Of a DNA stretch of 61,720 bases, positions 29,702 through 48,987 are shown in pieces. Source of the stretch: a virus; the IMG/VR virus record IMGVR_UViG_3300035438_000178, positions 1 to 61,720 of that record; one strand, given 5' to 3'. How positions within the stretch are numbered: the stretch's first letter is position 1; the number at the start of each line of letters is the position of its first letter. A model generated the notes under the pieces. That model did no database searches and was not told the origin of the DNA. It saw only the letters and a program-made list of their open reading frames with translations. Made by a program: the position numbers and the translations under genes.

Positions 29702-30007
29702 GGATTTGGAAATGTCATTTTTTTTTCGTAACTTCGCTTTGTCTTTAGACAGCTTTAGCATTGCAGCAATAACAATGTTATGTAAAGCAATGTATTCACA
29801 GAATCCCTTGCTTTTCCAAATCATAGCGTAAAACACGCTGCAAATACAACACAAACCATAACACGCTGAAGTCACAAACGTAAAGACGGCGTATTGCATT
29901 TATACATATAGGCTATTTCAATCCACCTTAGTGGTTGAATTAACAGATTCTATCTTCCTCAAAACCAATGGGGTAGCTGAACCACTTCAAGTTTTGCTTT
30001 AAATTGG

Positions 30008-30053
30008 GAGAAATGTATATGGTGCATAAAACATATGAGAAATGTATATGGTG
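30008..30053 (+). repeat. Two 17-bp direct repeats (iteron-like)
   Basis: GAGAAATGTATATGGTG occurs at 30,008-30,024 and 30,037-30,053, 29 bases apart start to start. An ATAATATATATATA stretch follows directly. Paired iterons next to AT-rich DNA suggest initiator binding and duplex opening. Confidence 0.65.
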
Positions 30054-30144
30054 GGGATAATATATATATAGGGACGGTCCGTAGCGCGTACCCAAACGCA
30101 TCCGCGCACCCAAGCCCCCGCGCGCGCACGCAGAGTTAGAATAA

Positions 30145-30355
30145 TATCTAGCCTTTTCTATAACTCCTAGTAAGAATATCTTAGCCTATTAGTTAGATAT
30201 CATAGTATTCTTTCTCTCCATCTAACCAATTGATTACTAGATACTAATGGTTTATTATCTCACTTAGTTCTTTAATTAAACCTTATATCTTTCTATCTAA
30301 CAAATAGTTAGAGTAAACAATCCCCTTCTTAGATATCTAACTAAGTATCTAATAC
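30145..30355. repeat. Cluster of TATCTA/TAGATA words
   Basis: TATCTA or its complement occurs at about 30,145, 30,194, 30,295, 30,331 and 30,346, with partial versions between. TTAGATATCTAA (30,329-30,340) is a perfect 12-bp palindrome. The cluster may be an operator array or additional initiator sites upstream of P1. Confidence 0.5.
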
Positions 30356-30387
30356 AAAAACGGGCGAGGCGACGGCTCCAAAAAAGT

Positions 30388-30429
30388 AATAATTTATATT
30401 GTTCCAAAGGAACATATATATAAATTATT
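30388..30429. promoter_or_regulatory. Long inverted repeat upstream of P1
   Basis: The arms AATAATTTATAT-TGTTCC and GGAACA-TATATATAAATTATT flank AAA, with one three-base length difference. The minus-strand side is followed by ACTTTTTT, so it may terminate leftward transcription. It also lies 22 bases before the TTGACAA of P1, where it could act as an operator. Confidence 0.6.
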
Positions 30430-30451
30430 AAAAAAAAACATTTCAAAAAAC

Positions 30452-30485
30452 TTGACAACGGCATTTCCACCGCCATATCTTTGCA
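30452..30485 (+). promoter_or_regulatory. Early promoter P1
   Basis: TTGACAA at 30,452 and TATCTTTGCA at 30,476, with 21 bases between TTG and the -7 box. This matches the Bacteroidota TTG/TAnnTTTG promoter closely. It drives the small early genes from 30,550. The base sequence after the -7 box (GCATCGTC) is shared with P3. Confidence 0.85.
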
Positions 30486-30549
30486 TCGTCGCCGAGAGGA
30501 AAGCCCTCCACACACCGCGACTAATGAATAACTTAATGTAATAGTTATT

Positions 30550-30774
30550 ATGAGTAAGATTAAAAACAAATCTACAAAGAGTAATTACTCACCTCGTAAA
30601 ACTCCAAGTTTTACTAGTATCTACCAAGAGAATATCTATGTCTCTTATGCCTTCAAGAAGATTAAGGCTAGGTTTAACTCTAAGTGTTATGCTACCGGTA
30701 CTTTGATTCCTGTTGGAGCAGAGATGTGGTATGATTATGCTAACAAAACTTGTTTTGCTATGGACTCTATTTGA
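30550..30774 (+). CDS. Small basic early protein, 74 aa
   Basis: First gene after P1. The N-terminal 25 residues are Lys/Ser-rich and probably disordered; the remainder (residues 25-74) is a compact beta-rich domain with C-Y-A-T-G-T-L-I-P-V-G-A-E-M-W-Y-D, reminiscent of small nucleic-acid-binding domains. A 7-bp hairpin (AATAACT/AGTTATT) in the leader ends just before the ATG and may influence translation. Family unknown; early host-takeover role is possible. Confidence 0.6.
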   Translation: MSKIKNKSTKSNYSPRKTPSFTSIYQENIYVSYAFKKIKARFNSKCYATGTLIPVGAEMWYDYANKTCFAMDSI

Positions 30775-30826
30775 GTTCATAGCACTGAGTAAGAAAAAAA
30801 AAAAAAAAAATTAAAAACTATTAGTT

Positions 30827-31027
30827 ATGAAAACTATTTCTCAAGCAACTTACAATTCAATCTACAATAAGTACCTAAAGTTAGTTAACTACTACGATGA
30901 GTTACTTTGGAATGATGGTTACGATGATGATGGTGAAACTACTGAGGATTGGAGTTATATCATTAGTATGACTAATGAGTTCAATGAGAGGTATCATCTG
31001 ATGATGAAAGGTGTAAAGGTTAACTGA
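30827..31027 (+). CDS. Small acidic early protein, 66 aa, ending inside the ribozyme
   Basis: A helical, Tyr- and Asp-rich protein (Y-Y-D-E-L-L-W-N-D-G-Y-D-D-D-G). It follows a run of 17 A residues at 30,794-30,810. Its final codons GTT AAC form the 5' arm of hammerhead stem I and its TGA stop (31,025-31,027) is part of the CUGAUGA catalytic core. Ribosomes ending this gene would therefore sit on the ribozyme. Function unknown. Confidence 0.6.
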   Translation: MKTISQATYNSIYNKYLKLVNYYDELLWNDGYDDDGETTEDWSYIISMTNEFNERYHLMMKGVKVN

Positions 31028-31073
31028 TGAGGCTTTAATAGCCGAAACATATCCTAAGGGATATGTCTTAACC
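31018..31073 (+). ncRNA. Type I hammerhead ribozyme
   Basis: Stem I GGTTAA (31,018-31,023) pairs with TTAACC (31,068-31,073). The core CTGATGA (31,024-31,030) is followed by stem II GGCT/AGCC with loop TTAAT, then GAAA (31,044-31,047), stem III CATATCC/GGATATG with loop TAAG, and T-C at 31,066-31,067. Every invariant hammerhead nucleotide is present, including the A-U pair after GAA and C at the cleavage site. Cleavage is predicted between 31,067 and 31,068, separating the 66-aa gene from the downstream 48-aa membrane protein gene. Stem I is short and has no internal loop for the usual tertiary contact. Confidence 0.92.
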
Positions 31074-31086
31074 AAAATGTTTAGTT

Positions 31087-31233
31087 ATGCATAAAGTAAT
31101 GTGTTTCATCCTGATGTTAGCAGGTACATTCCTGTTCGCTGAGTGTCTACGTCGTGGATTCGTAGGCTTTGGGCTGATAGGTGCTATGTCTGCTGTAGCC
31201 GGATTGTACTCCTACATTCAGGAGGGAAAATAA
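31087..31233 (+). CDS. Small membrane protein, 48 aa
   Basis: ATG at 31,087 lies 19 bases after the predicted ribozyme cleavage site. The protein has a hydrophobic segment at residues 4-19 and another at about 25-42, separated by C-L-R-R-G, so two short membrane helices are likely. Its gene is directly followed by an inverted repeat and promoter P2, the same order as for the 54-aa membrane protein before P3. Confidence 0.6.
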   Translation: MHKVMCFILMLAGTFLFAECLRRGFVGFGLIGAMSAVAGLYSYIQEGK

Positions 31234-31236
31234 ATT

Positions 31237-31255
31237 TATACTACGAAGTAGTATA
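31237..31255. promoter_or_regulatory. Inverted repeat upstream of P2
   Basis: TATACTAC and GTAGTATA flank GAA. It begins four bases after the preceding stop codon and ends 34 bases before the TTGACAA of P2. The same 34-base distance occurs at P3, which favours an operator role shared by the two promoters. Confidence 0.6.
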
Positions 31256-31289
31256 TACGGCAAGAACTAAAATTTTTTTTGCCAAACAC

Positions 31290-31323
31290 TTGACAAAGGG
31301 GTTTCGATTGTTATACCTTTGCA
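31290..31323 (+). promoter_or_regulatory. Early promoter P2 (amidoligase 1)
   Basis: TTGACAA at 31,290 and TATACCTTTGCA at 31,312; 21 bases separate TTG and TACCTTTG. The flanks C-C-A-A-A-C-A-C before and T-G-T-T before the -7 box closely match P3, so the two promoters are likely duplicates. Confidence 0.85.
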
Positions 31324-31381
31324 GAGCCAACGGCGAAAGGGTCACGCCGAATGTTTGACCCGAATGTACAAAAATTGTGTT

Positions 31382-32761
31382 ATGAAAAATGTTTTCGATT
31401 ACGAGGGTCAACAACACCCTATGTCTGAGTGTGTAGTGCTACACGAAATGAGTGACTACGGCGGTGAATATATTCACCGAGATGTGGCTGTAGCCTTCCG
31501 TCTTGATGGGGAAACGCAATACTTTACTCCGGAGGAGGCTGTCTACGACATCTACGACACCCCTGTGATGCTGAGTGACGCGGTGCTCTTAGACAGGGGC
31601 AACCACGGAGGCGAGTGGTGCGCTATGAACGAGGCTGTCCTCACTGAGGATGCCGGATGGGTTCACGTTTCCGATACTTACTACGTAAGTTTGAGCGACG
31701 GAAACACCTACTTCTATATGTGGAACTTACGAAATGTTACCGAAGGTACTGTCGCCGAAGGGTGGTACAGCGAGGACGATTGTGTCTACGTAGAGGATGC
31801 AGATGCCTACTACCACGTAGATGATGAGGGTGTGTGGTACACCTTCGATGAGCAAAATTCCGAGTATGTTTTAATCCAAAATGATAACCAAAACCCCAAT
31901 GTTATGAGCACAATGTCTACACCTACCCGCGGCATCAACACCGGCATCCGTGTCGAGGACTACCACCAAGGCCGGATGGGTTCACCTGTCCGTGAGTGGA
32001 AAGCGGGCGAGGCAAAGTTTACCATCGGCTTCGAGGTTGAAAAAGAGGACACCACACCTACGAATGTGTGGAGCGTGATTGACACCCGTGTCTACGGATG
32101 GGTTCGAGAGCGCGACGGCTCACTGAACCATATGACCGGATACGAATTGGTCTCACCTACCTACGACCTGTTCGGGTCTGAGCTCGACACCGACCTTGCA
32201 AGCGAGTGCATCACCGAGCACGTCAACGGCGCCTACAGCGAGCGCTGCGGGGGGCACATCAACTTCGGCATCAAGGGTCTGACCGGATTGCAGGTCTACG
32301 AACAGATGAAGGGCTTCACACCCCTGTTGCTGTCCCTTTACAAGGGACGTTTGCTGAATCGCTACTGCAAAATTCGTCCGGACTACAAGGACGGCAGCAA
32401 GATGGGCGCTGTGCACGTCAAGCCGGGCTTCATCGAGTACCGAGTGCCGAGTGCCGTCAAGAGCACTGAAAATTTGCTGTGGCGCCGCGATTTGCTCCGC
32501 ATTGCCGCCGAGCACGCCGGAAAGGGTGCGGCCTACTTCACCCGGGCTGCGATGACCAAATCACACCCGCTGCACAAGCACTTGCGTAAGGTCTACGACG
32601 AGCGCACAATCGCACTGCGAGTGGGCTTTGCACTGTCGCTTGCCGAGCGTATGGAGGGCAAAAAATTCTCCAACTACGTTACCTTCACCGAGGTAACCGA
32701 CATCATCGACGTCCACGCCGCGGATGTTGAGCGCCACCTACAACAGGCTGCACACCTGTAA
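31382..32761 (+). CDS. Amidoligase 1, glutamine-synthetase-fold ligase, 459 aa
   Basis: I chose ATG 31,382, about 55 bases after the P2 start; the longer open frame would begin inside the promoter. Residues 1-190 are an acidic, Tyr/Asp/Val-rich domain of unknown role. The amidoligase domain follows: F-T-I-G-F-E218-V-E220, R-D245-G-S-L, E255-L-V-S-P, C289-G-G-H292-I-N and E352-Y-R354. These match the Amidoligase_2 pattern; the family joins amine and carboxylate groups with ATP. N294 stands where the second copy has His. GC rises to about 63-65% in parts of the second half, unlike its neighbours, a sign of transfer. A G-rich hairpin follows the stop. Confidence 0.85.
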   Translation: MKNVFDYEGQQHPMSECVVLHEMSDYGGEYIHRDVAVAFRLDGETQYFTPEEAVYDIYDTPVMLSDAVLLDRGNHGGEWCAMNEAVLTEDAGWVHVSDTYYVSLSDGNTYFYMWNLRNVTEGTVAEGWYSEDDCVYVEDADAYYHVDDEGVWYTFDEQNSEYVLIQNDNQNPNVMSTMSTPTRGINTGIRVEDYHQGRMGSPVREWKAGEAKFTIGFEVEKEDTTPTNVWSVIDTRVYGWVRERDGSLNHMTGYELVSPTYDLFGSELDTDLASECITEHVNGAYSERCGGHINFGIKGLTGLQVYEQMKGFTPLLLSLYKGRLLNRYCKIRPDYKDGSKMGAVHVKPGFIEYRVPSAVKSTENLLWRRDLLRIAAEHAGKGAAYFTRAAMTKSHPLHKHLRKVYDERTIALRVGFALSLAERMEGKKFSNYVTFTEVTDIIDVHAADVERHLQQAAHL

Positions 32762-32914
32762 GGTACACGTAGGCAAGGGGGTGTGTGTAGATATACACAC
32801 CCCTACACCTACACACGTAGACATACATATCTACACATATATGCACGTCTACATACGTAGACATACACACATACACACCTACACCTACACATAAACCCAC
32901 AAACACCTACACCT
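32762..32914 (+). repeat. CCTACAC/TACGTAG-rich intergenic tract
   Basis: This gene-free stretch is mostly overlapping copies of ACACCTAC, TACACA and TACGTAG. It opens with the hairpin at 32,778-32,803 and ends with A-C-A-C-C-T-A-C-A-C-C-T directly before the next ATG. The same words precede the starts at 33,638 and 36,628. Confidence 0.7.
32778..32803 (+). terminator. Hairpin after amidoligase 1
   Basis: GGGGTGTGTGT (32,778-32,788) pairs with ATACACACCCC (32,793-32,803) over a four-base loop, 11 pairs including one G-U. No U tract follows, so it may instead stabilise the mRNA 3' end. A similar GGGGTG/CACCCC hairpin follows amidoligase 2. Confidence 0.6.
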
Positions 32915-33511
32915 ATGGCTAACATTTGCAACAACTTCGTAACGATTTCCGGCAAGCCTGAGAATATCCGAGCTGCCTACAATTTTCTCCTCGACTACAC
33001 ACCCGACCACGGCGTGATGTACGACCGACTGCGCGACCTACACCTACGTAAGGGCTACACCCTGACCCCTGAGGACAACGGCGCCGCCTCACCTGTGTGG
33101 TGGGAGTACAACGTAGAGTACACAATCGTCGACCTTGACAACAAGGTAGATGTAATTTCTGTCGTCGGTGGTTCAAAGGGAATGCCGCCTGTGGATTTCC
33201 TACGCCTACTGAGCGAGCACTTTCACGTAGATGTGAGCGCTAAGTACGAGGACTACGCCGGATTCATCGGCGGATACTTCAAGGCTGTCAACGGTGACCC
33301 TATTGTCGACGATTTCCTGAGCCTACTTGAGTACCTGTGGCGCTACGATGACGAGCGCATTGCCTTCTACGATGAACTGCATTCGCTTTGTAAGTGGAAC
33401 GACCACGGCTTCGAGGATGTTAAACGACTGCATCTGAGTGAGTTTAAAACACCACTGACCGATGATGAATTGAGAATCATTGGAAAGTATTTCGAGGATG
33501 ATGCCTCGTAG
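32915..33511 (+). CDS. Api92-like/DUF1281-type protein, 198 aa
   Basis: The N terminus M-A-N-I-C-N-N-F-V-T-I-S-G is the hallmark of the phage and mobile-element Api92-like ferredoxin-fold family. The middle has P-V-W-W-E-Y-N-V-E-Y and the C-terminal half is acidic and helical. GC is high (around 55%), like the adjacent amidoligase 1, so they may have arrived together. The role is unknown; position between amidoligase 1 and the GATase makes it a candidate substrate or partner. Confidence 0.65.
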   Translation: MANICNNFVTISGKPENIRAAYNFLLDYTPDHGVMYDRLRDLHLRKGYTLTPEDNGAASPVWWEYNVEYTIVDLDNKVDVISVVGGSKGMPPVDFLRLLSEHFHVDVSAKYEDYAGFIGGYFKAVNGDPIVDDFLSLLEYLWRYDDERIAFYDELHSLCKWNDHGFEDVKRLHLSEFKTPLTDDELRIIGKYFEDDAS

Positions 33512-33637
33512 GTACACACCTACACCTACGTACATACACGTAGGCACGCACACCTACACCTACGTACACATACATACGTAGGTACACACACCTACCTACA
33601 CACACATATACCTACACCTACAAACACCTACACACCT
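33512..33637 (+). repeat. Second CCTACAC/TACGTA-rich intergenic tract
   Basis: Like 32,762-32,914, this stretch consists of tandem-like ACACCTACACCTACGTA words with TACGTA palindromes. It separates the Api92-like gene from a small membrane protein gene. At least seven copies of ACACCTAC can be counted by eye. Confidence 0.7.
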
Positions 33638-33802
33638 ATGAGAAACTTACCACACTACCTTGCTTCGACCTTCACCGGATTGTCTACGTTCGCTTTTGTT
33701 TTCGCTGTGCTACACAATGAGTACACACTTGCGATTGTATCTACACCGCTTGCGATTGTATCCACACTTACACTTGCTAGCCTCGATTGGAAAAAATCAT
33801 AA
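33638..33802 (+). CDS. Small membrane protein, 54 aa
   Basis: ATG 33,638 to TAA 33,802. Residues about 8-26 and 29-49 are hydrophobic, giving two predicted helices with a short H-N-E-Y loop; the end is D-W-K-K-S. Its stop codon lies in the inverted repeat that precedes P3. It has no clear sequence similarity to the 48-aa membrane protein before P2 but holds the same position. Confidence 0.55.
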   Translation: MRNLPHYLASTFTGLSTFAFVFAVLHNEYTLAIVSTPLAIVSTLTLASLDWKKS

Positions 33803-33812
33803 CGTAGTTATG
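33798..33812. promoter_or_regulatory. Inverted repeat upstream of P3
   Basis: CATAAC and GTTATG flank GTA. It overlaps the stop codon of the preceding gene and ends 34 bases before the TTGACAA of P3, the same distance as at P2. All three early promoter repeats have a three-base spacer. Confidence 0.55.
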
Positions 33813-33846
33813 TATAGCAACAACAAAAAAATACTTCACCAAACAC

Positions 33847-33880
33847 TTGACAAGGGCATACCGAATGTTATACCTTTGCA
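33847..33880 (+). promoter_or_regulatory. Early promoter P3 (GATase and amidoligase 2)
   Basis: TTGACAA at 33,847 and TATACCTTTGCA at 33,869, with the same 21-base TTG to -7 spacing as P1 and P2. It starts a transcript with a leader of about 100 bases before the GATase ATG. A short TCGT/ACGA hairpin begins the leader. Confidence 0.85.
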
Positions 33881-33985
33881 TCGTCAAACGACAAATGTTC
33901 AACCTAATACCTGATGCTTATGTAATGTGACCTGTTCAACAAATGCTTTAATAAAAATGTATAACTTATTTAAATTCAATAGCCT

Positions 33986-34882
33986 ATGTGTATAGCAATT
34001 CTTAACAAGGGAAACGCGGTTTCCAAAAAACATCTGAAAAATTCTTGGGACTCCAACTTCAACGGCGCGGGTCTTATGTGGGTACAAGGTGGTGCACTGC
34101 ACACCTACAAGAAAGCCAACAAGCACAAATCAACTGACTTCACCGAGTTCTACGACACCTACCTACAAGCGTATGACAATCGTGACGAGAACACACCTGT
34201 GGGTATTCACTTCCGCATTGCAACGCACGGCAAGACCGACGAGTTCCTTCACCCATTCAAGGTAGGTGAGAACATCGGCCTTATGCACAACGGCATCCTA
34301 AGCGGGCTAGGTACTGAGGCGTACAGCGACACGGCTAAACTTGCCGACCTGTTGTCCGGACTGCCGGAGGTTATGCTCCAAAATGTCGACGAGTTATTAT
34401 CCAATAACTTCATCTACACGGCGCTTGCATCTATGTGTGGTACAGGTAATAAACTAATCTTTATCGACAACACCGGTGACTACGAGATTGTCAACGAGAA
34501 AGCCGGACATTGGGCTGACGATAATTGGTACTCCAACGACTCCTACAAGAACAGCGGTGTGCGCTACTACGGAGACAAGGCTGTCTACGATTGGGGAAAG
34601 GGATGGGGAAAAGCGTGGGAAAAGCCTTACACTGCATCTACACCTACGTTAGGGGCATCTGTAGGTAAGCCCTTGCCTGCATTGCCTAAGGCATCTGTGC
34701 CCTTTGTTGATGCGGATGTTGATGAGAGCATCATCGATGATACGGATACCAAATCATTGGGTACTTTTTGGTGTAGCAAATGTTACAGCACTGAGTACGT
34801 TACCGATGCCTGTGAGTGCGACCGATGCGGAACCTACAACTACCGGGCTGAGACCGCTGTGTGTGGGTTACTGTACTCGTAA
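33986..34882 (+). CDS. Class II glutamine amidotransferase, 298 aa
   Basis: The protein starts M-C2-I-A-I, so Cys2 becomes the N-terminal nucleophile after Met removal. H-F-R-I-A-T-H-G and L-M-H-N-G-I-L are the conserved Ntn-amidotransferase motifs that bind glutamine and form the oxyanion hole. Residues about 200-250 are a Pro/Ala/Asp-rich linker, and the C terminus holds a four-plus cysteine zinc-ribbon-like module (C263, C266, C276, C278, C281). It would hydrolyse glutamine or a gamma-glutamyl amide. It lies between two amidoligase genes, so it may supply ammonia or edit their product. No synthase domain is fused. Confidence 0.85.
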   Translation: MCIAILNKGNAVSKKHLKNSWDSNFNGAGLMWVQGGALHTYKKANKHKSTDFTEFYDTYLQAYDNRDENTPVGIHFRIATHGKTDEFLHPFKVGENIGLMHNGILSGLGTEAYSDTAKLADLLSGLPEVMLQNVDELLSNNFIYTALASMCGTGNKLIFIDNTGDYEIVNEKAGHWADDNWYSNDSYKNSGVRYYGDKAVYDWGKGWGKAWEKPYTASTPTLGASVGKPLPALPKASVPFVDADVDESIIDDTDTKSLGTFWCSKCYSTEYVTDACECDRCGTYNYRAETAVCGLLYS

Positions 34883-34935
34883 TGTTCAACCTATTGTTTA
34901 ATCGAATTGTCTAACTATTTAATCCTTAATGTATT

Positions 34936-36576
34936 ATGATTCACAATGTTAACTTCCTAGCTCCCAACTTCGGCCTCCCGGAGGACTTGTTCAACTACTA
35001 TACAGATGAGTGCCTTCGGCCTTACCTACGTAACCTTAACACACGTTATCAAGCATCTAGCAATGGTACTTATGTTCCGTTACTGCCGCCTATTCATACG
35101 GCAAAAAATTTCTCAGTAAATAGTGATATGAGGTCTCAGTACCAACGTACAGGTGGTACTCTATACAAGCAAGCAGATATGACGGCTGATGCCTATGCGT
35201 ATGGCTCAAATGTGCGAGCTTCATTTAAGGGACAATCATCGCCTTTGCATTCTTCTATGTGGTGTTGGAGCGTATATGACTTGATGATTCCGTGGACTAA
35301 ATTCATAAGCCACTTCAATAATCTTGGTGAGTCAGTTATTTTTACAGCGGGCAGAGAAGACAATCGCATATACCTACCTATCGCCTCAAAGTTCCCGCAA
35401 TTTGATAGTAGGCATTGCATTGCAAGCCCTAGTGTATCTGAGGGTGTTGAGCGACTGAATGGGTGGGGATACATCTACAAAAATCTTAATGCTCCTCGTG
35501 GTGTATTGAGTATGTTTAACGAGCAATACCTACGTGACATTGGAGGGTTCGATGAGGCAACAGCTGAGGATATTCTTTCTATGGCGAATGCTACTGCCTT
35601 CTTCGTAGAGAATAATTCTATATCCTGTTGCCTTTCCTCATCTATGCCTGAGGAATACATTGATGACAGCGAGGATGTGTTCGATATGGACAGCCCTGAT
35701 ATGCAAGCACGTCTAGGTATACCACAAGCGGAAGAAACGCCTCCTGTTCTTGAAGTGCGTTCCTACAAGGGATTCAATCGGGTTCACAAGGCAAGCAAGA
35801 AGGCTAAGTTCACTATCGGATTCGAGGTGGAGAAAGAAGATTCATCTGTCCGCCGTTCTGTTGATGCCGACCTGTTGTACAACACTACACGGTGGGCTAA
35901 GGAGCGCGATGGTTCGCTGAGTAGTTACTCCGGTTACGAATTGGTCTCACCTACGTATGACCTGTACACCAATGACTTGGACAACGACCTGAAGAACAGC
36001 GAGGACTTACGTAACCACATAGATGCACAATACAACACAGGCTCTTGCGGTGGGCACATACATCTAGGCGCCACAGGTGTGACGGGTAAACGATTGTTCC
36101 AAATGATGGGGCCGTGGATTCCGCTTATCTACTCACTGTATGTGGGGCGTATCAACGGACGGCACTGCAAGGTGAAGAAGAATGAGAATATCATTCGTGA
36201 CGATGAGAAATACCAATCGGTTCGCATCTTTGACAATCGCGTCGAGTTACGTATTATAAGCGCTGTGCCTGATGTAGACACGCTGTTGTGGCGCCGCGAT
36301 TTGCTTCGTCTTATTTGTGACAACTTGAGTGCTACTCCGTTCACTATCCTTGCGATGATGCACGACAAGCGTTCGAAACTACACAAGCACTTGCGTAAGC
36401 AATACAGCGCTACCAACTTGGAGAAGAAAATCCAATTGTATGTGTACTTCGCTAACCAATTGTTGAGTTCCGACTACACACGATTGGAGAAACGCATTCC
36501 TGAGTGGGAGCGTATGTTCACATCTGAGCAGCGTTCACACCTCCGTGCTCACGGTTTCTCTAACTATGTATCTTAG
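34936..36576 (+). CDS. Amidoligase 2, 546 aa
   Basis: Residues 1-280 are an N-terminal domain unlike that of amidoligase 1, with aromatic-rich segments (S-S-M-W-C-W-S-V-Y-D-L). The catalytic domain has F-T-I-G-F-E297-V-E299, R-D325-G-S-L, E335-L-V-S-P, C371-G-G-H374-I-H376 and E437-L-R439. The two catalytic domains share these motifs and the L-L-W-R-R-D-L-L-R segment, so they are paralogues. GC is nearer the genome average than in copy 1, so the duplication is old or the copies came separately. A GGGGTG/CACCCC hairpin follows. Confidence 0.85.
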   Translation: MIHNVNFLAPNFGLPEDLFNYYTDECLRPYLRNLNTRYQASSNGTYVPLLPPIHTAKNFSVNSDMRSQYQRTGGTLYKQADMTADAYAYGSNVRASFKGQSSPLHSSMWCWSVYDLMIPWTKFISHFNNLGESVIFTAGREDNRIYLPIASKFPQFDSRHCIASPSVSEGVERLNGWGYIYKNLNAPRGVLSMFNEQYLRDIGGFDEATAEDILSMANATAFFVENNSISCCLSSSMPEEYIDDSEDVFDMDSPDMQARLGIPQAEETPPVLEVRSYKGFNRVHKASKKAKFTIGFEVEKEDSSVRRSVDADLLYNTTRWAKERDGSLSSYSGYELVSPTYDLYTNDLDNDLKNSEDLRNHIDAQYNTGSCGGHIHLGATGVTGKRLFQMMGPWIPLIYSLYVGRINGRHCKVKKNENIIRDDEKYQSVRIFDNRVELRIISAVPDVDTLLWRRDLLRLICDNLSATPFTILAMMHDKRSKLHKHLRKQYSATNLEKKIQLYVYFANQLLSSDYTRLEKRIPEWERMFTSEQRSHLRAHGFSNYVS

Positions 36577-36581
36577 TGGTG

Positions 36582-36597
36582 GGGGTGTGTTCACCCC
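36582..36597 (+). terminator. Hairpin after amidoligase 2
   Basis: GGGGTG and CACCCC pair over TGTT, six bases after the stop codon. It resembles the hairpin after amidoligase 1 and lacks a U tract. Confidence 0.55.
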
Positions 36598-36627
36598 TAC
36601 CTCTACATACATAACACACCTACACCT

Positions 36628-36807
36628 ATGACACTACCGGAAGATGCGGCTAAGAACTATGCCGCTTGGGTAATGGAGCAACACAATCCTGAATACGAAA
36701 TCGAGATGCTGTTCCTCCGCTTATCGGACAGACAACAGGTATATGCCTATGCCGATATGCTTGAGAGTACGAACACAATCGACGACGAACTATTCGAGGA
36801 TGATTGA
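36628..36807 (+). CDS. Small acidic protein, 59 aa
   Basis: ATG 36,628 follows A-C-A-C-C-T-A-C-A-C-C-T, the same start context as at 32,915. The protein is helical with W-V-M-E-Q-H-N-P-E-Y-E-I-E and a very acidic end (D-D-E-L-F-E-D-D). Function unknown; it may be an inhibitor-like or partner protein. Confidence 0.55.
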   Translation: MTLPEDAAKNYAAWVMEQHNPEYEIEMLFLRLSDRQQVYAYADMLESTNTIDDELFEDD

Positions 36808-36842
36808 ATTAAAACTTTAACTAACTAATACAACTTACTGAT

Positions 36843-37085: not shown

Positions 37086-37196
37086 GATTCTCATCTACCT
37101 ATGCCTGATACCTACACGTACTGTCCGGGTATCTAGGACTACATACCTACACATATATAGAAACGGACGGACAAAAACTAAATTCAATACAACACT

Positions 37197-37661: not shown

Positions 37662-37686
37662 CCTCACTTAAAGTTTTTATTTAGTA

Positions 37687-37719: not shown

Positions 37720-37740
37720 TAGTGCAAGCAGCAGCTGAAA

Positions 37741-37764: not shown

Positions 37765-37830
37765 AAAGCAGCACAATACAAAGGTGGTCTTGGGCATATA
37801 GTATTTAATTCAATTCAAAAAATGTGTTAA

Positions 37831-40984: not shown

Positions 40985-41007
40985 TCAACAAATAAATTCA
41001 ATTCAAT

Positions 41008-41700: not shown

Positions 41701-42446
41701 AACTACAAGAACTTACAGGTAAAGATGCTCTTTCATACAGCAGTATGAAGGAAGCATACAAAGACCTGAAGCGGTTTGACCTGTATGTGCGTGGACTTCT
41801 ACGCAAGGAAACAGACAGCCTGTCTTTTGGTACGCTGTATGACGATGTACTCCTTACTCCGGATTGCATTGGCGACAAGTATGCTGTCTTTGATGACACC
41901 GAAATATGCGAGAAGATTGGTGGTAAACAACCACGCTTGACTACAGCATACAAGGATGCTAAAAAGCATTTTATGTATGAGGCAGGACATCGCACAATCG
42001 TAAGCATAGATGATATGAATGCGGCTAATGCTATGGCTAAGCGCATCAAAGATTCCGGAGTATATGACACATATCTATCGGGAGAGCATCAAAAGAAAGT
42101 CATAGGTTTCATCAATGAGTTTCCTGTTAAAGGGTTCTTAGACAACTTAGGCGATGGATTTATTTCCGACCTTAAAACATCTAGCAATCCCGATGCTTTC
42201 AAGCGTGATGTAATGGTGTATGACTATGACCTACAGGTCTACATCTACACGGAACTGACTGGCATCAAGGACTTTTATTGGATTGTTCAGGGAACTAATT
42301 CACCTTACAGCATTCGGGTTATCAAGGCATCTGAATACACGATTGCTAGCGGCAAGATGAAGTTTGATATGGCCTACGCTAACATACTTAGCTATGTGAA
42401 CGGAGAGATGACGCCCGATGCTTACTACGAGTTCTCTGAGGTATGA
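41685..42446 (+). CDS. PD-(D/E)XK exonuclease, 253 aa
   Basis: The nuclease core shows D153 in G-F-L-D-N-L, then D162-L-K164 in I-S-D-L-K-T-S and Q184-V-Y-I-Y188, the order of RecB/lambda-exonuclease-like enzymes. E134 may complete the metal site. Partnered with ERF, it would resect double-stranded ends to expose strands for annealing. The first 100 residues are probably a DNA-binding or YqaJ-type leading part. Length fits phage exonucleases. Confidence 0.85.
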   Translation: MELAIKLQELTGKDALSYSSMKEAYKDLKRFDLYVRGLLRKETDSLSFGTLYDDVLLTPDCIGDKYAVFDDTEICEKIGGKQPRLTTAYKDAKKHFMYEAGHRTIVSIDDMNAANAMAKRIKDSGVYDTYLSGEHQKKVIGFINEFPVKGFLDNLGDGFISDLKTSSNPDAFKRDVMVYDYDLQVYIYTELTGIKDFYWIVQGTNSPYSIRVIKASEYTIASGKMKFDMAYANILSYVNGEMTPDAYYEFSEV

Positions 42447-42988
42447 AAGACGTACACGTAACATTCGACATTGAGACACTAGGGACAGATTTTAATTCAC
42501 CTATTGTTCAACTTGCGGCAGTTAAATTCAAGGACTATAAAATCATTGACGAGTTCAATGAGTATATTGAAATTGATAGTTTAACTAAACGTGACTACGT
42601 TCCTGATATTAAAACAGTTATGTGGTGGATGAGTCAGGAACATCACGTAATGAAATCTGTCTTTTTTTCTGAGCCAAGAGTCAAGATTGGTACAGTTCTT
42701 AACCAATTCTACTATTGGATGAGCCGTGAGTATATCGAGAATGTTTGGTGTCATTCCACATTCGATTATGGAATCCTAAAGACCACCTATGCTAAAGAAT
42801 ATATGAAGTGCCCAATCAGTCACCAAAATATTCGAGACATAAGGACTTTAGAGTCATTGACCGATGGCGGAAGAAAGAGGGCTATTTTAAAACAGAAGCA
42901 TCATACAGTCCACGATGCACTAACCGATTGTAAAATTCAGGCAGAATACATTGCCTACGCATTATCTTTAATCTCTAACAAAAACTAA
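42443..42988 (+). CDS. DEDDh 3'-5' exonuclease, 181 aa
   Basis: All four catalytic positions are visible: F-D9-I-E11-T, T-F-D108-Y-G and H157-D-A-L-T-D162. It belongs to the DnaQ/ExoX-like superfamily, smaller than a polymerase subunit, and may trim 3' ends or degrade RNA or single-stranded DNA. It is coupled by four bases to the exonuclease gene and by one base to the SSB-like gene. Confidence 0.85.
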   Translation: MKDVHVTFDIETLGTDFNSPIVQLAAVKFKDYKIIDEFNEYIEIDSLTKRDYVPDIKTVMWWMSQEHHVMKSVFFSEPRVKIGTVLNQFYYWMSREYIENVWCHSTFDYGILKTTYAKEYMKCPISHQNIRDIRTLESLTDGGRKRAILKQKHHTVHDALTDCKIQAEYIAYALSLISNKN

Positions 42989-42989
42989 A

Positions 42990-43382
42990 ATGGAAAACAC
43001 AAAAATCTTCGCCGGATACGTTAAGTCCGTAAAAGTGTGGAATGATGCAGCTCGTTCATTCGTAGACCCTGATGCAGGTGTAGCTGTTCGTTTCTCTTTG
43101 TCTATTGCAGAAATGAATGACCTTCAGCGCTACGCAACAGCAGGTGAAAAGCCTTTCGTTTCATTTGACTTGAAGCTTTCTTCTAAGGGCAAATACTACA
43201 TCGAAGTATCTGACCCATCAACTTGGTCTAAGCAAGCACCACGAACTGTTACTCCGGCAACTCCTGAGCAAGCATTCGGAGGTCCTGCTGCTACGCAGTA
43301 CCAACCTACATTTCAGCCTGTAGCTCAGGCTCCTGTAGGACACGCACCTGCAATTACGCCTACGGATGACCTACCCTTCTGA
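42990..43382 (+). CDS. SSB-like single-stranded DNA-binding protein, 130 aa
   Basis: The first 85 residues form a small beta-rich domain (I-F-A-G-Y-V-K-S-V-K-V-W-N-D; F-D-L-K-L-S-S-K-G-K-Y-Y), then a Pro/Gln/Ala-rich linker and the acidic tip T-D-D-L-P-F. That tip is the SSB C-terminal docking motif that recruits replication partners. The domain is shorter than bacterial SSB and may be a divergent OB fold. It lies between nuclease and initiator genes. Confidence 0.75.
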   Translation: MENTKIFAGYVKSVKVWNDAARSFVDPDAGVAVRFSLSIAEMNDLQRYATAGEKPFVSFDLKLSSKGKYYIEVSDPSTWSKQAPRTVTPATPEQAFGGPAATQYQPTFQPVAQAPVGHAPAITPTDDLPF

Positions 43383-43443
43383 TTTAGTTAAGTCATCATT
43401 AGGTTTCCTTTGTGGTTTGGAATGGGGGTTGGAGGTTGTCAAG

Positions 43444-43734
43444 ATGACGCCTCCTACCTTCCAAGCCTACACACCTATGAAGGATATGGCTATGTTTGAA
43501 ATCATAGAAGCGAATGTCGTCGAGAGAGGTGTACTTTCTTTAGAAAAGATACCGCCTCACAAGTTCTCTGTCATCTACATTCCGTGGAAGAAAGGCGACA
43601 ACGTACTATTGGTTGAAACAAAGAATCTCAAGAGTTTAACAATTACCGGAGAAGACCTAGCAAAAATCATCATTCGACGCGCAGAGATAGACGTTGAAGC
43701 TGTATTGGATGCTGGACTAAAAAAACATAAATGA
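43444..43734 (+). CDS. Hypothetical protein, 96 aa
   Basis: ATG 43,444 is preferred to the longer frame, which overlaps the SSB-like gene. The N-terminal half has P-P-T-F-Q-A-Y-T-P-M-K, the middle is beta-rich with I-P-W-K-K-G-D-N-V-L-L, and the C terminus is a charged helix. It overlaps the DnaA-like gene by four bases. No family recognised. Confidence 0.5.
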   Translation: MTPPTFQAYTPMKDMAMFEIIEANVVERGVLSLEKIPPHKFSVIYIPWKKGDNVLLVETKNLKSLTITGEDLAKIIIRRAEIDVEAVLDAGLKKHK

Positions 43735-44219
43735 CATACGAGTACAGACCCGCCAAGATAGGTGAATTTGTCAAGGCTGTCTCGGACTTTTACAAAGTAG
43801 ATTTGTTTGCAAAGTCGCGTACTCAGATGTTAGTAGACATTCGGCACGCGTGCTACTTTGTATTGCGCCGGAGACCTATTACATTTCAGATGATTGGCAA
43901 TGCCTTCGGGAAGAATCACGCCACTGTGATTCACGGAGTACAAACAGCATCAAGCCTTCTTGATATAGGTGATTTCAAGATGACACTACACATTAGAAGT
44001 GTTGAAGCTATAGCCGTCACATTCTTTAATGAGAATGGGATAGATATGATTGACCCATTGATTCGTGAAGATGCATTTAGAATTCGCTTATACAATTTTC
44101 TAGAAGAAAACAAAGAACTACTTCCCGACTTGACAGATAAGTATCGAATTACGGCCTACAAACGATTAACACTTGAAGTGTATGAAAAAGCCTTTTACAA
44201 AGATAAAGAGGACTCCTAA
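43731..44219 (+). CDS. Stand-alone DnaA domain IV-like initiator, 162 aa
   Basis: Residues about 12-80 match DnaA domain IV: V-S-D-F-Y-K-V-D near 17, S-R near 29, then the signature I55-G-N-A-F-G-K-N-H-A-T-V-I-H-G69, equivalent to F-G-G-R-D-H-T-T-V-L-H-A in DnaA. This module reads DnaA boxes. There is no AAA+ domain (Walker motifs absent), so the protein can bind but not open DNA alone. The second half is helical and may recruit other replication proteins. Two perfect DnaA boxes lie elsewhere in the genome. Confidence 0.8.
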   Translation: MTYEYRPAKIGEFVKAVSDFYKVDLFAKSRTQMLVDIRHACYFVLRRRPITFQMIGNAFGKNHATVIHGVQTASSLLDIGDFKMTLHIRSVEAIAVTFFNENGIDMIDPLIREDAFRIRLYNFLEENKELLPDLTDKYRITAYKRLTLEVYEKAFYKDKEDS

Positions 44220-44370
44220 GGAGCACGCAGACATACTTTTCGGTATGCACGGAATTGAAGATGCATTAATCAACGCCAAACAAGTGTACTTTATCGCTAC
44301 AGGTGATGCTAGTGATTATTGGAAAGAGGTAATTCAAATACTAGAATCATACAATGTCAGCCGTACTTGA
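44182..44370 (+). CDS. Small hypothetical protein, 62 aa
   Basis: ATG 44,182 fills the only gap between the initiator and the primase-helicase. The protein is Lys-rich then helical with H-G-I-E-D-A-L-I-N-A-K-Q-V-Y-F. It overlaps the initiator by 38 bases and the next gene by 17. Expression is likely but unproven. Confidence 0.5.
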   Translation: MKKPFTKIKRTPKEHADILFGMHGIEDALINAKQVYFIATGDASDYWKEVIQILESYNVSRT

Positions 44371-46204
44371 AAGTAAAATAACCATTTTCAAGTCAGTATT
44401 CGAGAAAGATTCACCTGCATACATAACTGTAAATCAGGCACTTAACAGAATACGAGACGGAAGACAACAGGCAACTATTGATTTAATCCGTCAAGGCAAT
44501 AAAGAGGCTAAGACGCGACTACCTGTAGTCCTATGGTCAGGAGTGTTCCGCAAGCGCGAGGACAATCAACTCATTGACCACAGCAGATTAATCGTAATTG
44601 ACATTGACCACGTATCTGAGTTCTCGACTGTAGATGAGGTTAAAGACCTGTTGTGCGTAGATGACTACGTAATGGCTACTTGGGTATCTCCTTCCGGAGA
44701 TGGAGTCAAGGCGCTAGTACAAGTCACTAATCCTGAACGGCATCGTGACCACTTCAAGGCACTTGAAATCTATTTTGATAAACGATATGGTATTACCATA
44801 GACGCATCAGGAAAGAATGAGAGCCGTGCTTGCTTTGAGTCCTACGACCCAAACATCTGCATTAAGACAGCTAAGCCCTTTGGGAATATGGTGTCTACAG
44901 AAGAGGTTAGACAGCAACAGGAAGCACCAAAGAAGACAGCTCCTATAAAGGCAACTGATTATCAGAAGCTAAACGTAGCGGCATTGATGGTTCGTCGGGC
45001 ACAACCCGGAGAGAAACACGCTGTCCTTCTACGTGCGGCTATCTTGTGCGGAGGATTCGTATCTGCGGGTAGAGTAGAGGAAGACGAGGCATATCGCGTA
45101 CTCCTACGTGAGATTCAGCGTCACGACATTGAAAGCATTGACTCAGCCAAGAAGACAATCTGTGACGGAATCGAGGAAGGGAAGAGAAAGCCTATCCACG
45201 AAATCGTAGAGCAAGAGGAGAAAGAGAAGCGTAGATTTCAAATTGAGGACGGAGATATGTCATTCATTTCATCTGATGATTCAGATGAGGATTGGATTAA
45301 CGCTTTTGCTGAGGGCCGTATCGAAATGGGGCTGACCACAGGTCACCAAAATATAGATACACACTTTGTCTACAAGAAAGAGTTCATCATCGTAAATGGA
45401 CACAGCAACGTAGGTAAAACTACACTCGCACTCCATATGATGCTCAATGCATCTATACGACACGGATGGAAATGGATTATCTATTCAGCAGAGAACAAGA
45501 CAGCATCTATCAAGATGAAGCTGATGCAGTTCGCTTGCGATATGGATATTAAGTCAATGTCTTACCTGACTCGTAAACAAGCCTATCAATGGGTAAAAGA
45601 CCACTTTATCATCATTAAAAACGATAAAGTATACTCCTATATGGACATCTTGCTATACATTGAGAAGGCAATGACCTACAAAAAGGTTGACGGTGTATTC
45701 ATTGACCCATACAACTCCTTACGCGTAGACATAAGCAAGAATTCAGGCGTAGGTGTGCACGAATTCCACTACGATGCTGCATCTGAGTTCCTTACCTTTT
45801 CCAATTCTAAGAACGTAGCACTATGGCTTAATATGCACGCTGTCACTGAAAGCGCTCGTAGAAAGGGAGAAGACCAACTTCCGGTAGCTCCGATGGCTGA
45901 AGACAGTGAACACGGGGGCAAATGGGTGAATAGAGCTGATGGATTCCTTACCTTTCATAGAAAGATTCAACATCCTATCCCACAGGTGCGTAGAACAATG
46001 GAGGTACACGTTAGAAAATGCCGTGAAACAGAGACAGGAGGAGAGCCTACATCATTAGATAAGCCTATACTTTTGGAGATGAACAACTCTAGAACTAGCT
46101 TCAGGCTGTCTAATGGACAGAATCTGTTCCCACCTTTAGGTTCAATAACAGAAAATTTACAAGGAAGTTTACCAATTATTGGTGATATTGATATAGCCTT
46201 TTGA
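44354..46204 (+). CDS. Primase-helicase fusion, 616 aa
   Basis: Residues about 1-180 resemble the VirE/BT4734-type N-terminal domain (V-I-D-I-D-H-V-S; W-V-S-P-S-G-D-G-V-K-A-L-V-Q-V), often part of Bacteroidota primases. Residues about 195-265 look like a PriCT helical module. A RecA-like ATPase follows, with Walker A G349-H-S-N-V-G-K355-T and Walker B F-I-D-P-Y near 455. It would unwind DNA at the fork and probably prime synthesis. No DNA polymerase gene is seen, so the host polymerase is needed. Confidence 0.8.
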   Translation: MSAVLESKITIFKSVFEKDSPAYITVNQALNRIRDGRQQATIDLIRQGNKEAKTRLPVVLWSGVFRKREDNQLIDHSRLIVIDIDHVSEFSTVDEVKDLLCVDDYVMATWVSPSGDGVKALVQVTNPERHRDHFKALEIYFDKRYGITIDASGKNESRACFESYDPNICIKTAKPFGNMVSTEEVRQQQEAPKKTAPIKATDYQKLNVAALMVRRAQPGEKHAVLLRAAILCGGFVSAGRVEEDEAYRVLLREIQRHDIESIDSAKKTICDGIEEGKRKPIHEIVEQEEKEKRRFQIEDGDMSFISSDDSDEDWINAFAEGRIEMGLTTGHQNIDTHFVYKKEFIIVNGHSNVGKTTLALHMMLNASIRHGWKWIIYSAENKTASIKMKLMQFACDMDIKSMSYLTRKQAYQWVKDHFIIIKNDKVYSYMDILLYIEKAMTYKKVDGVFIDPYNSLRVDISKNSGVGVHEFHYDAASEFLTFSNSKNVALWLNMHAVTESARRKGEDQLPVAPMAEDSEHGGKWVNRADGFLTFHRKIQHPIPQVRRTMEVHVRKCRETETGGEPTSLDKPILLEMNNSRTSFRLSNGQNLFPPLGSITENLQGSLPIIGDIDIAF

Positions 46205-46215
46205 TAACTTTGTAT

Positions 46216-46755
46216 ATGTCAAGGAATTATGATGTCAATATCGACCTACCAAAACCACCTAGCCTTAATAAGTTATATGCTGGTTCGCATTGGCAAAACC
46301 GCTATAACGATAAGTCAGAGTATTGGATTGGCATCGCAATTGAATTGGCAAAGTATCCTTTGTTTCGGGCTGAATCTATTAGTGTACATCTTCGCTACAA
46401 CTATAGGTTTGACGTTGACAATACTATCGTTGCTATTAAGTTTCTTGTTGACTTTCTTAGAAACCACGGCTACATTGATAACGACACTCCGAAATACTTT
46501 ACTGCGCTTAGCACAGTTTATGATAGTAACTTAGAGAAAGGAAGATTTACTGCAACAATTTCCTGCATAGGATACAAAGAAGTTCACAATGACCCCAACA
46601 GAACTATCCAATTGCTACTTGATAGCAGTAAAAAGGCTTCAAGAGTCGCTAATAAATCTGTACGAGGAACTACACGACGAACAGGGAAGTCCATTACCGT
46701 CGCTGGGAAAAGCAGAAATTCTGTTCGGGGAGTTTCGAAAAGACGCAAAAATTGA
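46216..46755 (+). CDS. rusA: RusA-like Holliday junction resolvase, 179 aa
   Basis: I chose ATG 46,216; the upstream TTG is less likely. Residues P-P-S-L-N-K-L-Y (14-21), F-D66-V-D68-N and I-D88-N-D90 match RusA, where three aspartates bind the catalytic metal. RusA cuts four-way junctions, so branched concatemers can be packaged. The family is about 120-130 residues; here a 50-residue Arg/Lys/Ser/Gly-rich tail is added. The tail overlaps another gene in a different frame. Confidence 0.8.
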   Translation: MSRNYDVNIDLPKPPSLNKLYAGSHWQNRYNDKSEYWIGIAIELAKYPLFRAESISVHLRYNYRFDVDNTIVAIKFLVDFLRNHGYIDNDTPKYFTALSTVYDSNLEKGRFTATISCIGYKEVHNDPNRTIQLLLDSSKKASRVANKSVRGTTRRTGKSITVAGKSRNSVRGVSKRRKN

Positions 46756-46831
46756 GTTTGATTTAATACGAGAATCTATAATTGAATTTAACGAAACGGA
46801 TGGTAACAGTAGTACACATAGACGGCCTTAA
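46589..46831 (+). CDS. Small acidic protein overlapping rusA, 80 aa
   Basis: A helical protein with L-I-N-L-Y-E-E-L-H-D-E-Q-G and F-D-L-I-R-E-S-I-I-E-F-N-E, ending N-S-S-T-H-R-R-P. It overlaps the basic tail of rusA by 167 bases in another frame and the glycosyltransferase start by 32. Its composition looks like real protein, so overprinting is likely. Confidence 0.5.
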   Translation: MTPTELSNCYLIAVKRLQESLINLYEELHDEQGSPLPSLGKAEILFGEFRKDAKIEFDLIRESIIEFNETDGNSSTHRRP

Positions 46832-47762
46832 TGGTATTAACTACCATAGGCTTATGGTTCCCTTGTTGCGGTTGACGCAAAATGGATTTAACTTCCATTG
46901 GATTCAAAAGATAAGTGAACTTAAGGATATGGACCTAGATAAGGTTGATAACCTTATCATTTCAAGGATGGCTCGAATCGAAGGACACGCAGAATTTAAG
47001 CGTATGCTTAAAGACCACGGCGTTAAATTGATTCTAGACAATGACGACTATTGGGAACTTGCTAAGCATAACCCAGCATTCTTTGCGTATTCTACAGATA
47101 TACGTCATCACATCAAGAAAACAATCAAGATTGCTGACGTGATATGGACTCCATCTCCGGCACTTGCTAAAGAGATGCAGCGTCTTAACCCAAAGGCTCA
47201 GATTGAGATAGTAAACAACGCTATCAATGAGTACGAAGACCAATGGGCTAATTGGAAGAAAACATCAGGTAGACAGCTTCACTTCGGGTATCTTGGGGCT
47301 GCTGCTCACAACAAGGACGCTAGGCTTATGAAGTACGAGTTCTATGGAAAAAACTTTGCTTGTCTACGCAAACTTGGGTACGAGCGAATCTTCAAGCCTA
47401 ACAAGGTGTGGCATCCAAAGGAGATTCAAGAGTATGGAGAGTTCTATCGTGAGATTGATGTATCTATCGCACCGCTTGAAACAACTCTGTTCAACCGATG
47501 CAAGAGTGACTTGAAGGTAACCGAGGCAGCTTGGACACGAACTGCACTTATTGCCTCAAATACAACTCCATACAAGGAGGTGATTAAGAATGGTGAAACG
47601 GGAATCCTATGTTCTACTCCACAAGAATGGAGAGAAGCAATAGAGTCAATGACCAAGAAGCGAGCACAGGAACTTGGGCATAACCTATATGAAGACCTAA
47701 AGAACAGCCCTAATCACAACCTTGACTTAGTTAATCAGAAACGAATTAAATACCTAATCTAA
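46800..47762 (+). CDS. Glycosyltransferase, GT-B family 1/4-like, 320 aa
   Basis: The N-terminal Rossmann half has V-V-H-I-D-G-L-N-G-I-N-Y-H-R near residue 4 and L-I-L-D-N-D-D near 75; the C-terminal half has F-G-Y-L-G-A-A-A-H-N-K-D and I-A-P-L-E-T-T, followed by K-V-T-E-A-A-W, the nucleotide-sugar binding pattern. ATG 46,800 is chosen over TTG 46,782. It would transfer a sugar to DNA, a virion protein or a host glycan. It overlaps the methyltransferase by one base. Confidence 0.78.
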   Translation: MVTVVHIDGLNGINYHRLMVPLLRLTQNGFNFHWIQKISELKDMDLDKVDNLIISRMARIEGHAEFKRMLKDHGVKLILDNDDYWELAKHNPAFFAYSTDIRHHIKKTIKIADVIWTPSPALAKEMQRLNPKAQIEIVNNAINEYEDQWANWKKTSGRQLHFGYLGAAAHNKDARLMKYEFYGKNFACLRKLGYERIFKPNKVWHPKEIQEYGEFYREIDVSIAPLETTLFNRCKSDLKVTEAAWTRTALIASNTTPYKEVIKNGETGILCSTPQEWREAIESMTKKRAQELGHNLYEDLKNSPNHNLDLVNQKRIKYLI

Positions 47763-48469
47763 TGAGCGATTTTATCAAAGAGTTCGAGGATGCTGCAAAT
47801 AAGCAGACCGACAAAGTAACACATCACGGATACCAACGATTCTATCCATACTTCCTACAAAAGTTTGTAGGTAATAATCCTAAGATTTTAGAGATTGGTA
47901 TTGAGTACGGAGGTTCTATGGTTTTGTGGAACAACTATTTAAAGAATGCCACTATATACGGCATTGATATTCAAGCAAAGCCTTCAAGCTTTGAGATGCG
48001 TATGTTTCAAGCCGACCAATCCAAAGAAGAGGATTTGGAACGCGTAATGAAAGAGATTGATTCTAAGCTCGATATAATTGTAGACGATGGCTCACACCAT
48101 CCTAAGCATCAGCTAGACACATTCGTGTATCTGTTCAAGCACCTTGCTGACGGAGGAGTATACATCATTGAGGACATCGAGACCAACTACTGGAAGTTAG
48201 CCGAACTATACGGATATAATATCAACTACGGAGTAGGACATCCTGAGTCACTGATTACAATCTTCAAGACAATCTCAGATTGTGTTAACTTAGAGATTGA
48301 CAAAACTGTGCTTTCTAATGATAAGCATATCCCTGTTTCTATACAGAAGAAGATTGAAATGATAACATTTGCTCACAATTGTATCATTATCGTGAAGAAA
48401 GATGAGCGATTCAAGAAATTCTACAACCGTGACTACATCTACACCTACTTCACTTCTGACGAAGCTTGA
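47762..48469 (+). CDS. Class I SAM-dependent O-methyltransferase, 235 aa
   Basis: The SAM pocket L43-E-I-G-I-E-Y-G-G-S52 is followed by Y-G-I-D69-I, then I-V-D108-D-G-S-H-H113 and Y-I-I-E-D-I-E-T-N-Y-W. This combination is typical of sugar O-methyltransferases of the CmcI/Elm-MIII type acting on glycosides. Directly downstream of a glycosyltransferase, it probably methylates the transferred sugar. Confidence 0.8.
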   Translation: MSDFIKEFEDAANKQTDKVTHHGYQRFYPYFLQKFVGNNPKILEIGIEYGGSMVLWNNYLKNATIYGIDIQAKPSSFEMRMFQADQSKEEDLERVMKEIDSKLDIIVDDGSHHPKHQLDTFVYLFKHLADGGVYIIEDIETNYWKLAELYGYNINYGVGHPESLITIFKTISDCVNLEIDKTVLSNDKHIPVSIQKKIEMITFAHNCIIIVKKDERFKKFYNRDYIYTYFTSDEA

Positions 48470-48875
48470 TGAAGGTACGCTGTTTGACTTGCTGAAGATG
48501 AAGATGATTGAGGACTTAACAATGTCCTCAACTCTTCACAGCGAGTTTGACTGCTACTCACGTAAGTATAGAGTTCTGATTGAACTCAAATGCAGAAAGG
48601 TACATTACGATACATTGCTTGTAGAACAAGGCAAGTACATAGATGTTATATCAAAAGCGTCTAGGCTTGGGTATAGACCCATCTACATCAACTCAACCCC
48701 AGAAGGAATTTGGGCATTTGATTTAAGCAAGGTAGAGCGAACAGCGTGGAAATATCAGATGATGCCATCTTATACTGAGATAGCAAACAACTCGTATCCT
48801 GCTAGAAAAGTAGCTAAAACTGTCGCCTACCTACACGTAGACGATGCTATCAGCCTTGCCCAACGCTTAGCTTAG
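48402..48875 (+). CDS. Putative PD-(D/E)XK nuclease, 157 aa
   Basis: Residues D50, then V-L-I-E61-L-K63-C-R-K, and E75-Q-G-K-Y-I give a plausible metal site, and the Y-I-N-S-T-P-E-G-I-W-A-F-D-L segment closes the fold as in small restriction-like nucleases. The Thr/Ser-rich first 20 residues overlap the methyltransferase gene by 68 bases; ATG at codon 33 is an alternative start. It is the last plus-strand gene and overlaps a convergent gene by 26 bases. Confidence 0.6.
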   Translation: MSDSRNSTTVTTSTPTSLLTKLDEGTLFDLLKMKMIEDLTMSSTLHSEFDCYSRKYRVLIELKCRKVHYDTLLVEQGKYIDVISKASRLGYRPIYINSTPEGIWAFDLSKVERTAWKYQMMPSYTEIANNSYPARKVAKTVAYLHVDDAISLAQRLA

Positions 48876-48987
48876 CGTAATGCTTACTTCCCTTACTCTT
48901 AGAGTATTTCGTCTTTGAGTGTACACCGGGACGACGACGCTTAGGCTTATGCATAAACACAGCCTTGAGTTCTTTTACTTTAGCCAC
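48850..48987 (-). CDS. Small conserved basic protein, 45 aa
   Basis: A GTG start at 48,987 (or ATG at 48,954) leads to TGA at 48,850. The protein contains H-K-P-K-R-R-R-P-G-V-H-S-K-T-K-Y-S-K-S-K, a pattern I know from very small conserved Bacteroidota phage proteins (R-P-G-V-H-A-K-T-K). It is the last late gene, and its end overlaps the plus-strand nuclease gene. Confidence 0.7.
   Translation of the reverse strand: MAKVKELKAVFMHKPKRRRPGVHSKTKYSKSKGSKHYAKLSVGQG

What the first reader, a model, noticed from the sequence alone, without database searches (positions are those of the whole stretch)
30000..48900. Dispersed octamer ACACCTAC/GTAGGTGT enriched throughout the early half
By eye I count more than 20 copies between 31.7 and 48.5 kb, in both orientations, in gene-free tracts and in coding sequence in all three frames (CAC-CTA-C, A-CAC-CTA, CCT-ACA-CCT). 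In the late half I found only one clear copy (near 21,525). About one would be expected by chance in the early half. Presence in three frames argues for selection on DNA, not protein. Often it extends to TACACCTACGTA. Possible roles: recombination or replication signal, DNA-modification or nuclease site, packaging tag.
Basis: seen in the sequence. Interest (0 to 1): 0.75.

Follow-up and report, generated by a model that had tools for sequence, protein, structure and literature searches.

The report
Word-biased leading region of a phage
In this phage of Bacteroidota the first stretch of early genes has been rewritten at the DNA-letter level: it is packed with the word CCTAC (first seen as ACACCTAC) and, for 12,000 bases, emptied of the word CCAG, while relatives empty other restriction-type words from the same place, which suggests that the first-exposed phage DNA carries its own disguise and marks.

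Summary
In detail: ACACCTAC occurs 28 times (1.5 expected), 27 of them at 31.7-48.5 kb, 23 on the + strand and 4 on the - strand. Twelve lie between genes, mostly in two low-complexity tracts. Early genes hold 16 against 3.5 under a codon-preserving null (maximum 10 in 2000 shuffles), in all three frames. The octamer is the tip of a broader surplus of CCTAC/CTACG, shared by relatives about 70% identical in the primase, which lack the octamer surplus. The surplus is strongest in the transcript sense and near the start of the early block; density is kept more than position.

The same block holds a stronger anomaly. CCAG/CTGG is absent from 29,298 to 41,497 (12.2 kb, about 74 expected) and AGACT/AGTCT from 28,055 to 50,441. 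GATC and CATG are absent genome-wide. Relatives have a word-free zone at the same place for other words (AGCT, CTAG, CCAG, GGACC). Best reading: a leading, first-exposed region purged of restriction-type sites and enriched in a transcript-sense mark. The purge fits site avoidance. The molecular role of CCTAC is inferred; a double-stranded DNA signal and a transcription-linked mutation bias remain open.

The parts
31704..48448 (.). Span of the 27 early ACACCTAC copies (23 on +, 4 on -)
   Evidence: Exact scan; frames and codon-preserving null
29298..41497 (.). Zone without any CCAG or CTGG (12.2 kb, about 74 expected)
   Evidence: in 20 genes starting in the zone 3 against 40.4 (minimum 27 of 1000 shuffles; the 3 lie at 41,497-41,542)
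28055..50441 (.). Zone without AGACT or AGTCT (22.4 kb, about 36 expected)
32762..32914 (+). Intergenic low-complexity tract rich in ACACCTAC, with a strong hairpin at 32769-32812, ending ACACCTACACCT at the start codon
   Evidence: RNA fold z -5.2
33512..33637 (+). Second intergenic tract; hairpins 33525-33544 and 33558-33583 built from CCTACGT/ACGTAGG arms
   Evidence: RNA fold z -4.7
36577..36627 (+). Short intergenic leader with hairpin 36578-36601, ending ACACCTACACCT at the start codon
30036..30105 (.). Noncoding element conserved in distant relatives, near the left edge of the zone; candidate genome end, packaging or control site
30452..30485 (+). Promoter-like site TTGACAA...TTTGCA (Bacteroidota type)
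31290..31323 (+). Promoter-like site of the same type
33847..33880 (+). Promoter-like site of the same type
31382..32761 (+). Early gene, C-terminal half paralogous to the amidoligase-like gene; carries 3 octamers
   Evidence: 41% identity over 258 aligned positions
34936..36576 (+). Amidoligase-like early gene, conserved in most relatives' zones

Best explanation
The octamer is the visible extreme of a lineage-specific surplus of the core CCTAC(G) in the early transcription block. That block most likely is the first DNA to enter the cell, or the first to be read, and it has been rewritten largely by synonymous change in two ways. (1) Shown: restriction-type words are missing from it (CCAG for 12.2 kb, AGACT for 22 kb), and relatives lack other words at the same place. 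Inferred: host-recognised sites are purged from DNA exposed before counter-defence acts. (2) Shown: CCTAC(G) is in surplus in all three frames and between genes, mostly in the transcript sense, with turnover of positions but upkeep of density. Inferred: it is a transcript-sense signal, most likely a short binding site on early mRNA (or on the non-template strand during transcription) for a factor of the phage or of its host group that favours early phage messages.
For: Zone anchored near the divergent point in many relatives with changing words. Codon-preserving surplus in all frames, not a by-product of avoiding the missing words. Pooled over four relatives' zones: CCTAC sense 166/66, antisense 26/16; CCTACG sense 69/19, antisense 12/7. 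In late genes, on the opposite strand, CCTACG is again in surplus in sense (54/26) and not in antisense (18/15), so the bias follows transcription, not one physical strand. Octamers stand just before start codons in three leaders. Only 51 of 192 aligned CTAC sites are shared.
Against: In the window itself the antisense words are also in surplus (GTAGGTGT 4/0.8, CGTAG 32/16), which an RNA-only signal does not predict. No RNA-binding partner is known. Entry order is inferred, not measured. The surplus and the purge may have separate causes: relatives with the same CCTAC surplus purge different words, and CCTAC surplus continues weakly past the zone.
Confidence: 0.38

Rival explanations
1. CCTAC(G) is a double-stranded DNA signal: a Chi-like word that tames a host helicase-nuclease acting on incoming ends, or a site for a phage DNA-binding protein that coats or organises the early region.
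For: Antisense copies are also in surplus in the window and pooled (CGTAG 57/29.5, z 7). The region coincides with the word-free leading zone. Some relatives have other words with strong polarity on one physical strand genome-wide, for example CGCTGTT in G008 (33/5.3 against 4/1.6), as Chi words would have.
Against: Sense surplus is larger than antisense. If the early end enters first, a nuclease entering there would read the minority orientation (from general knowledge of how Chi is read). In late genes the surplus follows gene sense, not a fixed strand.
Confidence: 0.27
2. Mutation bias: a context-dependent, transcription-linked process turns TTAC-type contexts into CTAC in heavily transcribed early DNA, with no function.
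For: TTACG is depleted (20/65) where CTACG is enriched (165/74), and CTTACG is 6/21. The bias is frame-independent, sense-directed and changes position freely.
Against: The surplus is specific to a 5-6 base core with extended flanks up to ACACCTAC, and most other one-letter neighbours are not depleted. TTAC to CTAC is also the main synonymous route open to selection. It does not explain leaders built of the word.
Confidence: 0.2
3. By-product of low-complexity tracts, codon usage and base composition of the early block.
For: 12 of 27 octamers are in intergenic tracts; early genes use more CTA and TAC than late genes.
Against: Codon-preserving nulls are exceeded in every frame, also when the avoided words are forbidden in the null, and relatives share the core surplus.
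Confidence: 0.08

Closest known systems
Restriction-site avoidance by phages (genome-wide survey, Rusinov et al. 2018, PMC6286503)
   Same: Complete or near-complete loss of short recognition-type words such as GATC and CATG from the whole genome
   Different: Here some words are lost only from a leading zone of 6-13 kb, the word changes between relatives, and one (CCAG) is not palindromic; a term search of that paper found no treatment of position or early genes
T5 first-step-transfer region and T7 leading end
   Same: Leading DNA is expressed before the rest enters and is tied to restriction insensitivity (T5: PMC9345386; T7 Ocr: general knowledge)
   Different: Unrelated phages; entry order is not known here; no anti-restriction gene was identified in the zone
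Chi sites of RecBCD/AddAB
   Same: Short over-represented word with preferred orientation
   Different: Regional, follows gene sense in both blocks, no enzyme known
Dispersed octamers such as HIP1 of cyanobacteria, DNA uptake sequences
   Same: Octamer-scale word scattered through genes in all frames
   Different: Those are genome-wide in hosts (general knowledge); this one is regional and graded around a 5-base core

Membership tests
Restriction-site avoidance | Word far rarer than a codon-preserving null | tested here: met
   GATC 0/179, CATG 0/99 in genes; CCAG/CTGG 3/40 in zone genes
Restriction-site avoidance | A host enzyme reads the missing word | not testable with these tools
   Host unknown
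Leading-region avoidance (T5/T7-like) | Missing words confined to one contiguous zone at the early end | tested here: met
Leading-region avoidance (T5/T7-like) | That zone enters the cell first | not testable with these tools
   Inferred from gene order and promoters only
Chi site | One orientation on a fixed physical strand | tested here: not met
   CCTACG follows gene sense in early (+) and late (-) genes
Chi site | Over-represented in the host chromosome and read by its helicase-nuclease | not testable with these tools
   Host unknown
Replication iterons | Regularly spaced direct repeats in one origin region | tested here: not met
   Copies dispersed over 17 kb, irregular spacing
RNA-binding-protein site | Enriched in transcript sense in all frames and leaders | tested here: met
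   antisense surplus in the window is a caveat
RNA-binding-protein site | A protein that binds CCUAC RNA | not testable with these tools
   No candidate; the passages read on Bacteroides RbpB describe a 41-nt sRNA motif and no CCUAC word

The most novel reading that the evidence does not exclude
Phages of this family write their entry order into their sequence: the leading 6-13 kb is purged of whichever host-recognised words matter, different words over different lengths, and in one lineage it carries a positive word (CCTAC) that marks early phage nucleic acid for protection or preferred expression.
Probability: 0.33. Interest if true: 0.82.

Novelty: new variant of a known kind. Interest (0 to 1): 0.66.

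Why it matters
If site avoidance is limited to the leading region, sequence alone would show which end of a phage enters first, how much DNA is exposed before counter-defence acts, and which words the unknown host cuts. A positive word in the same zone would point to an undescribed way of marking early phage messages or DNA. Both could be read from metagenomic phages without culture.

Tried and rejected
Octamer as a conserved site: rejected, 20 relatives' records hold 0-7 copies each. By-product of avoiding the missing words: rejected by a shuffle that also forbids them. Composition or codon usage alone: rejected. Iteron origin: spacing irregular. Other viral contigs holding ACACCTACACCTACGTA: besides a near-identical contig, five contigs with local copies only and no dispersed octamer in the stretches fetched. 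The phage's DnaA-type helix-turn-helix protein as the binder: its family reads a different box and nothing ties it to CCTAC; left open. Host identification by genome scan: one contig, in a Maricaulis bin, not informative. Literature on region-limited restriction avoidance in phages: nothing direct found in the open library. Long gaps of common words in some contigs (G006 ends, G008 at 21-24 kb, G004 at 53 kb) hit many words at once and were set aside as local sequence peculiarities.

Full report
Observation. ACACCTAC occurs 28 times in the window against 1.5 expected: 27 between 31,704 and 48,448, and one at 21,521. In the early block 23 are on + and 4 on -. About 12 lie between genes, chiefly in 32,762-32,914 and 33,512-33,637, low-complexity tracts with hairpins just upstream of start codons. 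The rest lie in genes, in every frame.

Null models. Shuffling synonymous codons within each gene keeps protein and codon usage. Against this null, early genes hold 16 octamers where 3.5 are expected (2000 shuffles, maximum 10). Sense copies by frame are 5/1.0, 4/1.4 and 3/0.2. The signal is graded: CTAC 191/109, CCTAC 66/25, CTACG 62/32, ACCTAC 37/11, ACACCTAC 12/2.7 in sense. Late genes show 0/0.9 in sense and 1/0.6 in antisense. So the unit is a core CCTAC(G) with preferred flanks.

Relatives. Searches with primase, amidoligase and terminase gave many IMG/VR relatives. Apart from near-identical contigs, none shows the octamer surplus of the window; 20 records hold 0-7 copies each. Five distinct early regions (the window, L082, L083, L084, L087) share the CCTAC/CTACG surplus with different flanks. 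Pooled over four leading zones, CCTAC is 166/66 in sense and 26/16 in antisense, CCTACG 69/19 in sense. In late genes, on the other strand, CCTACG is 54/26 in sense and 18/15 in antisense. Density falls along the block, partly through codon usage. Only 51 of 192 aligned CTAC sites in five genes are shared with relatives: density is kept, position mostly not.

The word-free zone. Looking for the reverse effect, GATC and CATG proved absent from the whole window (about 179 and 99 expected in genes). CCAG/CTGG is absent from 29,298 to 41,497, a gap of 12.2 kb where about 74 are expected from the rest of the genome. AGACT/AGTCT is absent from 28,055 to 50,441. In relatives a zone at the same place, beginning near the divergent point between early and late blocks, lacks other words: AGCT and CTAG in G001 and G002, AGCT in G003, CCAG and AGCT in G018 and kin, GGACC in G006. 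In a base-shuffled window the largest gap statistic was about 12, against 39-74 for the main cases here.

What the region is. The + block carries primase/helicase, an Erf-type annealing protein, exonucleases, a ThyX-type thymidylate synthase and an endolysin-like gene; the - block carries terminase, portal and structural genes. Three promoter-like sites of Bacteroidota type stand at 30,452, 31,290 and 33,847. A noncoding element at 30,036-30,105 is conserved in distant relatives and may be an end, packaging or control site. Distant isolated relatives infect Flavobacterium and Cellulophaga. That this block enters first is inferred from its position, its content and the zone itself.

Mechanism. 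The purge is best read as avoidance of host-recognised sites in DNA exposed before counter-defence acts, in line with what is known of the T5 leading region (PMC9345386). The surplus word follows gene sense in both blocks, stands in leaders, and is kept in number rather than place, so I favour a transcript-sense signal on early mRNA. A double-stranded DNA signal is the main rival, because the window itself also shows an antisense surplus. A mutation bias comes next, since TTACG is depleted where CTACG is enriched, although TTAC to CTAC is also the main synonymous route open to selection.

Limits. ORFs come from a simple caller. Early, late and leading are inferred. The host is unknown. Many words were screened, so only effects far above screening noise are used. 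The purge and the surplus share a region but may have separate causes. Chi-like words in other relatives are separate leads.

Noticed in passing
window 1-61720: Complete absence of GATC, CATG and CCWGG from the whole genome, as in most close relatives for GATC and CATG.
   Followed up: yes
G008 (IMG/VR record of L108): CGCTGTT is in strong surplus on one physical strand genome-wide (33/5.3 against 4/1.6 on the other) and AGCT is absent: a Chi-like, polar word. G004, G012 and G005 have other words of the kind.
   Followed up: partly
window 30036-30105: A 70-base noncoding element (GGGGATAATATATATATAGGGACG followed by a CG-rich run) conserved in distant relatives at the left edge of the zone.
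   Followed up: partly
window 43731-44219 and about 40958: A phage protein with a DnaA-type C-terminal helix-turn-helix, and a perfect DnaA box TTATCCACA just before the Erf-type gene (seen).
   Followed up: no
window 31382-36576: Three conserved early genes: two paralogous amidoligase-like proteins and, between them, a protein starting MCIAI that looks like a class II glutamine amidotransferase (from its start only).
   Followed up: no
L115 (13521 bases): Another word in extreme surplus, GGTCAGGT, 14 copies against 0.1 expected.
   Followed up: no
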